A stretch of 64,000 nucleotides of DNA, from positions 187,645-251,644 of the forward strand of contig DEYP01000028.1 of the NCBI GenBank assembly GCA_002364615.1, read 5' to 3'. A program made the translations under genes and the position numbers. The notes under the pieces were generated by a model that was not told the origin of the DNA, did no database searches, and saw only the letters and a list, made by a program, of their open reading frames with translations. Source of the DNA: Arsukibacterium sp. UBA3155 (GTDB lineage Bacteria > Pseudomonadota > Gammaproteobacteria > Enterobacterales > Alteromonadaceae). Positions 13,081 through 17,311 of this stretch are shown here, piece after piece. Numbering within the stretch: the stretch's first letter is position 1; each line of letters opens with the position of its first letter.

Positions 13081-13788
13081 ATGATGCGTATAATGTGGTT
13101 GCTGTTTATGTTGTCCTGGCACCTGTGCGCAGAGCCAAAAACACTTAAGGTGGCCGTTAATATCGGTCCGCCATGGGCGTTTTATCAGGAAGGAAAGGGC
13201 ATTACCGGTATAGATGTGGAAATTATCCGGCAGATATTAACTAAAATGGGTTACAGCAGTGAATTTCATCTGCTGGCTTATAATCGTCTGATCAAAGAGT
13301 TTAATGAAGGCAAATTTGATGTTGCCAGTCCTGCTGCATTTCCCTCAGAGAACGGCTATTTAACCACACCCTATTTGCCCTTTGAAGACGTTGTTGTGTC
13401 GCTCAAATATAATAAATTGGACATCAATACGCTGGCCGATTTAAAAGGTAAAAATATTATTGCCTATCAGTTTGCTAACGCTGTGCTAGGTGCTGAGTTT
13501 GCAGAGACGGTAAAGCAGGAAAACTATTTAGAAATTGCCGAACGGGAGCTTCAGCTTAAGTTATTGGTGAATGCCAGAACAGATGTGGTGATTGGCGAAC
13601 GGCGGCTATTAACCCACATTATGCAAAAAAATCACCCTAACATAAGCCTGACAATCCACCCGATATTTATTACCCAACCTTATGGTGCCATTTTCAAGGA
13701 ACAGCAGTTACAGCAGCAGTTTGATCAAGAGCTCGAAAAGCTGCAACAGTCTGGTGTGTATCAAGACATTTTAAACAACTGGCCCTGA
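13081..13788 (+). CDS. Periplasmic solute-binding protein, family 3
   Basis: A 235-residue protein with a short signal peptide (about 1-17) and a PBPb-type fold: LKVAVNIGPPWAF at the start, GIDVEIIRQIL, FDVASPAAF, the LADLKGKNIIAYQ hinge and a C-terminal GVYQDILNNW. The family usually binds amino acids for ABC transporters, but no permease or ATPase gene is adjacent, so it may be an orphan receptor. Orphans of this size are common in Alteromonadales. Two ATG codons start the frame; either is possible. Confidence 0.85.
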   Translation: MMRIMWLLFMLSWHLCAEPKTLKVAVNIGPPWAFYQEGKGITGIDVEIIRQILTKMGYSSEFHLLAYNRLIKEFNEGKFDVASPAAFPSENGYLTTPYLPFEDVVVSLKYNKLDINTLADLKGKNIIAYQFANAVLGAEFAETVKQENYLEIAERELQLKLLVNARTDVVIGERRLLTHIMQKNHPNISLTIHPIFITQPYGAIFKEQQLQQQFDQELEKLQQSGVYQDILNNWP

Positions 13789-13872
13789 TCGAACTGCAGT
13801 GGCTGCGGATTAAATTTAACGGCGCCATGCACGTTTAAAAACAACCATGCATTCCATAAACCCATTTAGCAG

Positions 13873-15180
13873 CTAACGCACCGCGGCCAGTGCGGCCAGG
13901 GTTTGGGTTATTTCCTGCTCGTTGTTAATCAGGCTTGGCGCAAAGCGGGCATAAGACTTCCGGTACGGTGTGCTACTCATAATGATGCCTTTACTGTGCA
14001 TGGCTTTAACCACATCATCCGCAGCCATATCGTTGTAATCAAAACAGACCAGACCTGAAGAGAGCTCGGCATTAAGCGGAGTGTGCAATTTAACCCCTTT
14101 CAGCTGACTGAGGCCCTGCTTCGTCAGGCTGTTTAACTGATGAATGCGCTGCTGGACGTTAGCTTTACCTAATTGTAAGTGCAATTTAAACGCCTCAGGC
14201 AAAGCCCAGCGATGTTCAAACGAGTGAAAACCGCCCGGTGTCATATGCTCACCAATTGGTACCTGGTCATAAGTACTGCCGCCGAGCCAGACGTCATAGG
14301 AACGACTAAAGCTGGGAATAACTGCCGTACATTGTGCCCAGCCCTTATCACTCCCCCACACCACACCCGTACCGCGGGGGCCGAAAATCCATTTATGGGT
14401 ACCGGCAATAAAAAAATCGCAACCCAATGTTGTTACATCCTCATTTTCAATGCCAAAGCCATGGACGCCATCAACACAGAACAAAATTTGATCGGACTCT
14501 GTCCGCTGGTTGTTCAGTGCTTTGAGCATTTCACCAATAGCCCGGATAGGGAGTTTGACACCGGTAGAGGAATGCACCCAGGTAAGGGCGACTACTTTAG
14601 TATTAGCTCCAATCGCTGTTTTTAAGCGGCTGACAATCTCATCAACACTAACCGTTGAGGGGTCATCATACAGGGCAACTTGCCGCACCTTTGCGCCGGT
14701 GCGCTCGGCCCGTAGCTGCAGCGATAAATCGGTTGAGTAATGGTCGTGTACTGTTTGCAGGACTTCATCACCCGGGCGTAACGTCAGCCCGCTGTATACC
14801 AGTGCTAAGCCCATGGTGGTGCTGTCGGTCAGCGCGATTTGAGACGCATCGCCGCCCATGTAGCTGGCTGCGGCAGCAGAGATTTCCTGATCAATCGTCA
14901 TAAAGTGTTCATGCCAGTAATCGGCCGGGTTAACGTCGAAAGCCCGACGATGTCGATCAATGGCATCCGCTACCGGTTTAGGATGGGATGCCAGGAGAAA
15001 TGTCGCCAGATGAATATAATCATGGCTTAGCGCAAACAGCTTACGCAACCCTTGCCAGTCTGCAGTTTTGACCACAACATTGTTGCTTTGCTCCGAACCC
15101 GCCTGCAGCAAAGCAGGAAAAGACAGCATGCTACTGCCCACAACCAAAGTAGATTTACTCAAAAACTCCCTGCGTTTCAT
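13873..15180 (-). CDS. Class V aminotransferase-fold PLP enzyme with Tat-like signal
   Basis: A 435-residue protein. The N-terminus KRREFLSKSTLVVGSSMLSF is a likely twin-arginine signal. The body is a fold-type I, class V PLP enzyme: LTDSTTMGL (phosphate-binding region), LTWVHSSTGV, FCVDGVHGFG (Asp for the pyridine nitrogen, His) and AGTHKWIFGPRGTG (Schiff-base Lys). It resembles the isopenicillin-N-epimerase/cysteine-desulfurase-like group. The reaction is unknown. A periplasmic PLP enzyme would need to be exported with its cofactor, which fits Tat. It appears monocistronic. Confidence 0.86.
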   Translation of the reverse strand: MKRREFLSKSTLVVGSSMLSFPALLQAGSEQSNNVVVKTADWQGLRKLFALSHDYIHLATFLLASHPKPVADAIDRHRRAFDVNPADYWHEHFMTIDQEISAAAASYMGGDASQIALTDSTTMGLALVYSGLTLRPGDEVLQTVHDHYSTDLSLQLRAERTGAKVRQVALYDDPSTVSVDEIVSRLKTAIGANTKVVALTWVHSSTGVKLPIRAIGEMLKALNNQRTESDQILFCVDGVHGFGIENEDVTTLGCDFFIAGTHKWIFGPRGTGVVWGSDKGWAQCTAVIPSFSRSYDVWLGGSTYDQVPIGEHMTPGGFHSFEHRWALPEAFKLHLQLGKANVQQRIHQLNSLTKQGLSQLKGVKLHTPLNAELSSGLVCFDYNDMAADDVVKAMHSKGIIMSSTPYRKSYARFAPSLINNEQEITQTLAALAAVR

Positions 15181-15521
15181 CTCAATCTTCCTGATTAAAT
15201 TTTAAACAGTTTAGTTGAAGATTTTGAAAACTGTTAGCGGGCCACCGGATGGCTTATGTTCAAGCCAGACATCGAACAGCACCGCATACAATGCTTTGGC
15301 AACCAATTTAAATTAATTTATTTAATTAAAAGTTGCTAACTTCTGAAATTGTACAATATTTAATCAGCAAGGGTAATAAATGGTTCACTTTCCGTCGTAG
15401 CAGAGCAGGCTTGTTGCTAAGCCTCAGATAGTGGTCAATAAAAACCCTTTCAGATCCCTTTCAATCCTCCCCTTTTAATAGTTGCTGAAGTTTTGGTATG
15501 AAAACAGCGTAAGGAAAGATA
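15181..15521. other. 341-bp A/T-rich intergenic region between divergent genes
   Basis: No gene found. The centre (about 15300-15370) is strongly A/T-rich with TTTAAATTAATTTATTTAAT-like sequence, so promoters for both flanking genes are likely here, but no single -35/-10 pair stands out. A good ribosome site (AAGGAAAG) lies just before the 15522 start. Confidence 0.6.
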
Positions 15522-16031
15522 ATGAGCCAAAGTCAGATTGAAGATGTCGTAAGCACTTTACTCAGTGCCCCGGTAAAAGCAGCAACATACGCCAATCGTG
15601 AACAAATGTATATTTGGCGAGATTACTTAAAAACTATAGAAGCTGTAATAGGAACTGTCACAGATCCTGCTCAGAAAGTTGCATTGATCAGTCAGTACAT
15701 GAGCATGGCGCCGACATGGAAAGTCGCGGCTCAAATAGATGTGGGGATTACAATGCGCATTGCCTCAATTTCTAAGACAACGGTAGGTGGTTCGTTAGGC
15801 ATCGCGGTCGGTTTAGTGCAAACAGCAGGTCAATTCTCATCAGAGAAATCCACTTCAACTGAAAGTTTACTTACAGCGCGAGCGCTTTATTCACTTTCAA
15901 ATGATAACGAAATACAACTTGAAAATTTCTTGAGTAGCTTGGGGATAGATCTGGCACAGCCGGATCAAGTGGCAACAGCAGTTGGCAAGTTGGAAAGTAT
16001 TACAGCTCAAGTCCATACAGCCTCTCAGTAA
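15522..16031 (+). CDS. Unknown protein, first gene of a three-gene cassette (DUF2589-like?)
   Basis: A 169-residue protein of no family I can name. It has an amphipathic N-terminal helical part (about 4-60), a beta-rich middle (about 67-126) and a helical C-terminus, with no signal peptide. The middle (AQIDVGITMRIASI, GGSLGI, SSEKSTSTESLLTARALYSL) appears to match residues 34-79 of the third cassette protein. The N-terminal SAPVKAATYANREQMY segment and the Ser/Thr-rich stretch before a strand recall DUF2589 proteins, but this is from memory and unverified. The ribosome site is AAGGAAAG. Base composition is visibly more A/T-rich than flanking housekeeping genes. Confidence 0.75.
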   Translation: MSQSQIEDVVSTLLSAPVKAATYANREQMYIWRDYLKTIEAVIGTVTDPAQKVALISQYMSMAPTWKVAAQIDVGITMRIASISKTTVGGSLGIAVGLVQTAGQFSSEKSTSTESLLTARALYSLSNDNEIQLENFLSSLGIDLAQPDQVATAVGKLESITAQVHTASQ

Positions 16032-16052
16032 AATAACAAATGGATTTGATAT

Positions 16053-16643
16053 ATGGATAATCTGAATTCAGAGCAAAAAAATAAAGTGCACGAAGTGCTT
16101 GTTGCATTGCAAAAATCATTATCTCGCGTCAGTAGAGCCTCTGCCGATAAAAAAAAGGGCGATGCATATGCCCTTATTACTGGCGATGTTAATTTCTCTA
16201 TTACACTAAAATGCGATTTAGAAGATGGTCACAATTTAACCCTTCATAAAGATGGCGCTATTGAACTTCACCTTGATGGCTCTATAGCAACTGATATAGA
16301 TGTGCAAGATGTCTTGGCCGACTCAGGCCCCCAAGACACGCAAAACGCCAACCCAGGCACTACTGAAAAAGACAACAACAATCCGGCTACATCTACTTCA
16401 GCTGAGGAAACTTTATACACAGATCTTCATAAGCTATCTCCTGAAAAACTTAATGCAACGTTAGAGAAAATTGAATCCGAGCTTGAGAAAAAGCCTGCCG
16501 GTTTGAAAAGTACTGCAATCAATGCACTGCTCAATGCGCTAATAAACATAATCAAGAACAATGCGCTTAGTCCTGCTGGAGCGCCAGCTGCTGCAGAAAC
16601 ACAAGCAATAAAACCAATTAAAAGAAAAACAAGCCGAAAATAA
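16053..16643 (+). CDS. Unknown protein, second gene of the cassette
   Basis: A 196-residue protein, no recognised family. It has an N-terminal helix (about 5-35), a short beta-rich part (about 44-85, DVNFSITLKCDLEDGHNLTL and AIELHLDGSIATDIDV), a low-complexity Asn/Thr/Glu linker (about 95-125), a second helical part (about 128-175) and a Lys/Arg-rich tail (KPIKRKTSRK). The tail suggests contact with nucleic acid or an acidic membrane. The gene is 21 bases after the first cassette gene and 21 before the third, so the three are probably one transcript. No signal peptide or catalytic motif is visible. Confidence 0.72.
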   Translation: MDNLNSEQKNKVHEVLVALQKSLSRVSRASADKKKGDAYALITGDVNFSITLKCDLEDGHNLTLHKDGAIELHLDGSIATDIDVQDVLADSGPQDTQNANPGTTEKDNNNPATSTSAEETLYTDLHKLSPEKLNATLEKIESELEKKPAGLKSTAINALLNALINIIKNNALSPAGAPAAAETQAIKPIKRKTSRK

Positions 16644-16664
16644 CCAGCAAGTGACGGAGGATAA

Positions 16665-16922
16665 ATGTCAGGAAAAGCAGAGATACCAGCAGGTTCAGCT
16701 GAGAAAGTATTTATTGAGTCAATCAAAAGAGTTAAGCAGTTAGGTGCCGATAACAAAATCAACGCTGCCGTAGACCTGGGCGTAACGTTCAGCTCAGTGA
16801 TGATTGATGAAAAGGGTGGTCTACTTGCGTTATTCAAGGGAAAAAGTAGCAATCATCAATCTATAGAGCTGAAGCTTGCAACGCGTATTTATCTTGAGGC
16901 ATCACCTGACTCAGCAAAGTAG
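16665..16922 (+). CDS. Unknown small protein, third gene of the cassette
   Basis: An 85-residue protein with a good ribosome site (GACGGAGG). It has an amphipathic helix (about 11-27) followed by a beta-rich part (about 34-79): AAVDLGVTFSSVMI, GGLLAL, and SSNHQSIELKLATRIYLE. This order and spacing resemble the middle of the first cassette protein, so the two probably share a module. The layout (helix, strand, Gly turn, basic/Ser stretch, final amphipathic strand) also recalls Trypco2-type small proteins; that comparison is unverified. No catalytic residues are apparent. Confidence 0.7.
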   Translation: MSGKAEIPAGSAEKVFIESIKRVKQLGADNKINAAVDLGVTFSSVMIDEKGGLLALFKGKSSNHQSIELKLATRIYLEASPDSAK

Positions 16923-17031
16923 TCAAAGTTAAAGCACCTGAATTTTTGTTACAAAAAACGATTTACTAATGAGGGGCAGTTGTGTTTCTAAATTAGAGAG
17001 GAATGCTTAGTAAGCATAAAAAATTAAGCTT

Positions 17032-17118
17032 TGGTGCCTAGGGTCGGACTCGAACCGACACGGAGTTTCCCCCGGCGGATTTTGAATCCGCTGCGTCTAC
17101 CGATTTCGCCACCCAGGC
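17032..17118 (-). tRNA. tRNA-Leu (anticodon CAA)
   Basis: The reverse strand folds as a class II tRNA of 87 nt including an encoded CCA. The acceptor arms GCCTGGG and CCTAGGC pair with one G-U. The anticodon stem GCGGA/TCCGC holds the loop TTCAAAA, giving anticodon CAA (reads UUG). The long variable arm and the TTCGAGT T-loop are present. It lies 110 bases from the three-gene unknown cassette, with its 3' end facing the cassette. Confidence 0.95.
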
Positions 17119-17311
17119 ACTGAGGGAGTTTTTGAAGTAAACGCCTGCATTATACGGTGCTGCTAAAGCTTGGCAAGTGCTTTTATGACACTTTGTTTTA
17201 ATTAACTTTTAAATGCACAAAATTGCAGCAGTGCTGAAAAAAGCCGAACCTGGCATCGCAAAAAAATACGACCATGTTAAACTTGCCGCAGTTTACTGAC
17301 AGGACTTTACT

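What the first reader, a model, noticed from the sequence alone, without database searches (positions are those of the whole stretch)
15522..16922. Three-gene cassette of unrecognised proteins, with a module apparently shared by genes 1 and 3
Three closely spaced genes (21-base gaps, each with a ribosome site) match no family I can name. They are more A/T-rich than their neighbours and sit beside a tRNA-Leu gene, a common insertion site. By eye, residues 70-125 of the first protein align with residues 34-79 of the third (AQIDVGITM with AAVDLGVTF, GGSLGI with GGLLAL, TARALYSL with ATRIYLE). All three combine an amphipathic helix with a beta-rich part; the middle one has a basic tail. The layout recalls DUF2589 and Trypco2 proteins, which have been linked to prokaryotic conflict systems, but this is memory-based and unverified. 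It is my best candidate for an undescribed system.
Basis: partly seen in the sequence, partly recalled or inferred. Interest (0 to 1): 0.7.

Follow-up and report, generated by a model that had tools for sequence, protein, structure and literature searches.

The report
Mobile three-gene cassette resembling DUF2589
Three small uncharacterised genes travel together between distantly related bacteria; the first protein looks like a very distant cousin of the unstudied DUF2589 family, but what the set does is not known.

Summary
The three genes are real and form a conserved module. All three, in one order and strand, occur in 8 records from six lineages and three phyla. They are under purifying selection and match no family above a cut-off. 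In the window they lie in a variable slot at the 3' end of tRNA-Leu: DNA similarity to 22 of 29 relatives starts at 17023-17032, never further left. Protein 1 is probably a remote DUF2589 (PF11655) relative: collinear profile alignment over 116-138 columns, reciprocal HMM AUC 0.990 and 0.995 against real background proteins. But HHalign probability is only 16% and Pfam does not recognise it, so membership is not claimed. Genuine DUF2589 cassettes had cell-wall hydrolases nearby in 7 of 21 loci (no background rate measured). All three Ideonella triplets follow a GH19/peptidoglycan-binding gene by 21 bases; the other lineages show none. Likeliest reading: a mobile, non-enzymatic three-protein complex of DUF2589 style. 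A conflict or lysis role is inference.

The parts
15522..16031 (+). Gene 1 (P1, 169 aa), DUF2589-like by remote profile similarity
16053..16643 (+). Gene 2 (P2, 196 aa): conserved N-terminal helix-plus-beta part (ALQK..SR, GDV.F, G...L.L.G.I..D)
16323..16640 (+). C-terminal extension of P2 (about residues 91-196: linker, helical part, basic tail), without counterpart in the other five aligned P2 sequences
   Evidence: alignment; for the basic tail
16665..16922 (+). Gene 3 (P3, 85 aa), helix then beta strands
17032..17118 (-). tRNA-Leu (caa); its 3' end at 17032 is the edge of DNA similarity to same-genus relatives
13785..17031 (.). Variable slot between the SBP gene and tRNA-Leu; here a class-V aminotransferase (13873-15180, minus) and the triplet
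   Evidence: seen bounded on both sides in 3 of the 7 longer relative regions

Best explanation
The three genes are one mobile accessory module encoding three small, soluble, non-enzymatic helix-plus-beta proteins that act together as a complex. Shown: the genes travel together in one order, closely spaced or overlapping, under purifying selection, across three phyla, and here sit in a tRNA-adjacent variable slot. Supported, not proven: protein 1 is a remote relative of DUF2589 proteins, which also occur in small multi-gene cassettes on chromosomes, plasmids and phages. Inferred: the module is a scaffold or adaptor for an effector encoded beside it or elsewhere; the best guess is a cell-wall hydrolase. 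Whether it serves phage defence, competition or lysis is open.
For: Three genes together in 8 of 8 records; genes 2 and 3 overlap in 6 of 8; purifying selection; variable slot. P1 vs DUF2589: hhalign score rises with DUF2589 depth, 23.8 with 9 sequences, 25.7 with 12, 27.1 with 24; 0 of 200 column shuffles reach it; HMM AUC 0.990 and reciprocal 0.995 against 172 background proteins; 20 of 24 DUF2589 and, reciprocally, 5 of 7 P1 beat all 20 of their own shuffles. No membrane-like segment (highest 19-residue hydropathy 1.27). Cell-wall hydrolases near DUF2589 in 7 of 21 loci; GH19/peptidoglycan-binding gene 21 bases before gene 1 in 3 of 3 Ideonella records.
Against: HHalign probability is at most 16.2; 5 of 200 and 1 of 100 block shuffles reach the score, though none with as many columns; AUC against reversed DUF2589 is 0.859; Pfam lists PF11655 for none of 7 P1 proteins at E<=1. 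P2 and P3 show no clear DUF2589 kinship (P3 18 of 60 column shuffles reach the score, P2 2 of 60 column and 10 of 60 block). GH19 is found in one of six lineages only; tblastn finds none in L004-L007 or the window, some of whose contigs end close by. No complex was modelled or measured. DUF2589-related genes of Archaeoglobus respond to lactate (PMC3949148, passage), which does not suggest conflict.
Confidence: 0.4

Rival explanations
1. The triplet is its own family, unrelated to DUF2589; the likeness reflects a common helix-plus-beta layout and similar local structure.
For: No Pfam hit; low HHalign probability; some block shuffles reach the score.
Against: Collinear alignment across most of the protein; reciprocal HMM separation from real proteins and from shuffles.
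Confidence: 0.25
2. A stress or metabolic accessory module spread by transfer, with no conflict role.
For: DUF2589-related genes up-regulated on lactate in Archaeoglobus (PMC3949148, passage read); no PADLOC hit; most lineages have no hydrolase beside the triplet.
Against: Patchy distribution: apart from centre genomes only 1 further genome in searches of 98, 369, 398, 198, 200, 198 and 144 genomes (sets may overlap); mobile slot.
Confidence: 0.2
3. A remnant of a phage or satellite: structural or lysis proteins retained by hosts.
For: DUF2589 pairs occur inside phage structural runs (L087 between SU10-type capsid and adaptor, L090 before SU10-type portal) and next to phage lysozymes.
Against: No triplet relative in 50,697 phage records or in five IMG/VR scans; no phage genes seen beside it.
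Confidence: 0.1
4. Genes 1 and 3 share a duplicated module.
For: Same register found independently; 1 of 200 column and 1 of 100 block shuffles reach the score. P3 HMM puts 5 of 7 P1 above their own shuffles, reciprocal 3 of 6.
Against: Only 33 columns, probability 4.8-7.1; other pairs of these small beta proteins score about as well.
Confidence: 0.2

Closest known systems
DUF2589 (PF11655) cassettes
   Same: Small multi-gene cassettes on chromosomes, plasmids and phage contigs; P1 aligns collinearly to DUF2589 including its N-terminal LIGGPL.AA-type helix and a G.....SG......S part; a small third gene of about 90 aa in several DUF2589 cassettes
   Different: P1 has no Pfam match and is shorter; DUF2589 typically comes as a tandem pair (partner also PF11655), whereas P2 is not recognised; P3 does not match the small DUF2589-cassette gene
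Trypco2 (PF19631)
   Same: Size and helix-then-beta order of P3; one Ideonella P3 at E 0.051
   Different: Below cut-off; profile comparison within the null. A trypsin-like gene stood beside Trypco2 in the 7 of 8 loci read (by eye); none was seen beside the triplets
VMAP/MoxR-vWA conflict systems (PMC7159879, passages read)
   Same: The setting in which Trypco domains were described
   Different: No such partner seen near the triplets; DUF2589 is not mentioned in that paper's main text

Membership tests
DUF2589 (PF11655) | Pfam model match above the curated cut-off | tested here: not met
   0 of 7 P1 proteins list PF11655 at E<=1; P2 and P3 of the window neither
DUF2589 (PF11655) | Profile similarity over the domain | tested here: inconclusive
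   Collinear, probability 16.2, 0 of 200 column and 5 of 200 block shuffles reach the score; AUC 0.990 and 0.995
DUF2589 (PF11655) | Tandem pair of DUF2589 genes | tested here: not met
   P2 does not match PF11655; P2 against partner proteins within the null, 8 of 100
DUF2589 (PF11655) | Same three-dimensional fold | not testable with these tools
   Structure prediction switched off; no PDB sequence relative of DUF2589
Trypco2 (PF19631) | Pfam model match of P3 above cut-off | tested here: not met
   Best of 6 members E 0.051, 14.3 bits against cut-off 24.2
Trypco2 (PF19631) | Neighbouring trypsin-like peptidase | tested here: inconclusive
   None among the neighbours read by eye or scanned, but several contigs end near the triplet
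Known anti-phage defence systems (PADLOC-DB 2.0.0) | Match of a component model | tested here: not met
   0 families for the three proteins at E<=10; neighbours not scanned

The most novel reading that the evidence does not exclude
The triplet is the minimal, divergent form of an undescribed class of mobile conflict or lysis machinery built on DUF2589-type proteins: a soluble three-subunit assembly that holds, activates or delivers cell-wall hydrolases, shared between phages, plasmids and chromosomes.
Probability: 0.17. Interest if true: 0.8.

Novelty: new variant of a known kind. Interest (0 to 1): 0.45.

Why it matters
It turns three orphan ORFs into a testable unit with relatives in three phyla, and gives a first pointer (remote DUF2589 kinship; cell-wall hydrolases recurring beside DUF2589) to what an uncharacterised, phage- and plasmid-borne family may do. 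In the held library one paper names DUF2589 and none names PF11655 or pfam11655.

Tried and rejected
Rejected: chance ORFs (purifying selection); enzymes (no catalytic-looking set among invariant residues; no PDB sequence match, best E 1, 0.19 and 0.62 for P1, P2, P3); P3 as a proper Trypco2. P1-P2 and P2-P3 were at chance in hhalign (38 and 53 of 200 shuffles reach the score).

Led nowhere: genome-contig scan with P1 alone; IMG/VR scans with triplet proteins; phage records (and 70 with DUF2589); plasmid searches with other members found only Ideonella or nothing; promoter and terminator scan at chance level; no second copy of the tRNA 3' end in the window.

Dropped rows: DUF2589 hits L089, L093, L095, L097 and L099 were left out of the neighbour census, L098 and L100 as near-copies of L092. 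Of 163 listed neighbour ORFs 128 were scanned; one search shows 25 of 60 families. The DUF2589 profile used 12 of 16 IMG/VR hits. The hydrolases were first noticed by eye before the census. Some profile alignments held L009 with a start three bases off (only). An earlier count said 11 same-genus DUF2589 genomes; the table gives 10. A first form of this report said 6 of 7 Trypco2 loci; one search shows 7 of 7 read.

Full report
Observation. The three ORFs exist as described: 169, 196 and 85 aa, gaps of 21 bases, clear ribosome-site-like sequence before genes 1 and 3 and a weak one before gene 2. They are low in G+C for this genome (0.435, 0.404, 0.426 against 0.492, sd 0.036, in 362 background ORFs), but so is the SBP gene just outside the slot (0.425). 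No family in Pfam or NCBIfam reaches a cut-off, PADLOC gives nothing and PHROGs only weak hits.

Conservation. tblastn of P1 found one plasmid of Ideonella dechloratans (31%, E 3e-11), whose next two genes proved to be P2 and P3. A class-level search of 369 genomes found the own genome and one more, again with all three genes. A genome-contig scan with a P2 profile gave 6 loci, one of them that same contig; all six carry the three genes in order. In sum 8 records, six lineages, three phyla (Pseudomonadota, Thermodesulfobacteriota, Balneolota). Identity of P1 to the window is 26-41%. The six genomes reached through loci each have one P1. Elsewhere it is rare: only the own genome matched in 98 relatives and 398 phylum-level genomes, and only the centre genome in 198, 200, 198 and 144 genomes around four of the loci; the sets may overlap. 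Genes 2 and 3 overlap by 4-35 bases in 6 of 8 records (the L004 start of gene 3 is a guess). Selection is purifying.

Genomic setting. The gene beyond the tRNA (RDD-type by eye) is present in 31 of 31 same-genus genomes. Around it, 22 of 29 relatives show DNA similarity to window 15181-17311; it starts at 17030-17032 in 21 of them and at 17023 in one, never further left. In the longer regions of 7 relatives similarity resumes at the SBP gene, 13784 or just below, in 3 (L079, L080, L081); in the other 4 it does not within the stretch held. Between SBP and tRNA relatives carry other things: an RND-transporter-like fragment in L079 (by eye), a ParDE module in L080 between the tRNA and a 68-base, 94% copy of its 3' part; L082 and L083 hold 58-base (84%) and 57-base (100%) copies. 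The window slot holds a class-V aminotransferase and the triplet, with no second tRNA copy and no integrase-like ORF recognised by eye. So the triplet is cargo in a variable site.

Kinship. DUF2589 (PF11655) was collected from 13 of 60 relatives (10 of 31 in the genus, not the own genome), 2 of 110 phylum genomes, plasmids and 16 IMG/VR contigs. P1 aligns to it collinearly: P1 11-163 with DUF2589 16-189 using 9 sequences, P1 10-127 with 13-163 using 24. The score rises with depth (23.8, 25.7, 27.1; probability 5.9, 10.4, 16.2). No column shuffle of 200 reaches it; 5 of 200 block shuffles do, none with as many columns; 1 of 100. HMM searches separate DUF2589 from 172 real proteins with the P1 model (AUC 0.990) and P1 with the DUF2589 model (0.995), and from shuffles (0.990, 0.949); against reversed sequences the values are 0.859 and 1.000. 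As a positive control DUF2589 and its cassette partner align at probability 97.3, and the partners scanned are themselves PF11655. P1-P3 similarity is short and weak; P1-P2 and P2-P3 are at chance in hhalign; P2-Trypco2 and P3-Trypco2 are within the null (67 and 19 of 100). I therefore call P1 DUF2589-like, not DUF2589.

Neighbours of DUF2589. In 21 loci, 128 of 163 listed nearby ORFs were scanned. 17 are DUF2589; the recurring enzyme class is cell-wall hydrolases (Phage_lysozyme 3, SLT 2, Muramidase 1, Hydrolase_2 1; Amidase_3 1), in 7 loci: L030, L035, L044, L045, L046, L048, L086 (L044 and L045 are 78% alike). No background rate was measured. Some pairs lie in phage structural runs (L087, L090). 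For the triplet only Ideonella shows this: a GH19 and peptidoglycan-binding gene 21 bases before gene 1 in 3 of 3 records, itself under purifying selection; tblastn finds no such gene in L004-L007 or the window. Downstream of the L005 triplet lie an IS-type transposase, a PDDEXK_13, an Mrr-like (below cut-off) and a TIR gene.

Mechanism. Shown: a mobile three-gene unit kept together. Inferred from the lack of membrane-like segments and of catalytic-looking invariant residues: soluble structural or adaptor proteins acting together. Inferred by analogy with DUF2589: partner of an effector, perhaps a cell-wall hydrolase. The Trypco and conflict link rests on passages of PMC7159879 and PMC10907252; DUF2589 has 0 occurrences in the main text of the former. 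PMC3949148 (passage) mentions a cluster of short DUF2589-related genes up-regulated on lactate, which points away from conflict.

Limits. Structure prediction was off; P1, P2 and P3 alignments hold 6-7 sequences; several contigs end near the triplet; the genus of the window is not told to me.

Noticed in passing
L080 1844-2755: ParDE toxin-antitoxin genes lie between tRNA-Leu and a 68-base copy of its 3' part: what looks like a tiny integrase-less element at the same site.
   Followed up: partly
L087 6532-9547; L090 307-4045: DUF2589 tandem pairs sit inside SU10-type phage structural gene runs (capsid, adaptor, portal); the DUF2589 proteins given to PHROGs matched no family convincingly, the best being E 0.0056 to a tail protein.
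   Followed up: partly
L019 146-2100: Another three-gene DUF2589 cassette (DUF2589, 247-aa and 188-aa reading frames), of a type seen in several same-genus genomes; the second and third proteins have no Pfam match above cut-off.
   Followed up: no
L005 1814-7593: Downstream of the Cellvibrionaceae triplet: IS-type transposase, PDDEXK_13 nuclease, Mrr-like and TIR-domain genes, as in a defence island.
   Followed up: no
L028 1872-2327 and 5019-6695: A same-genus DUF2589 cassette is flanked by a protein with a caspase-like HG...DAC pattern (by eye, no Pfam hit) and one with a weak alpha/beta hydrolase match.
   Followed up: no
window 16323-16640: The window's P2 alone has a roughly 100-residue C-terminal extension with a basic tail.
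   Followed up: no
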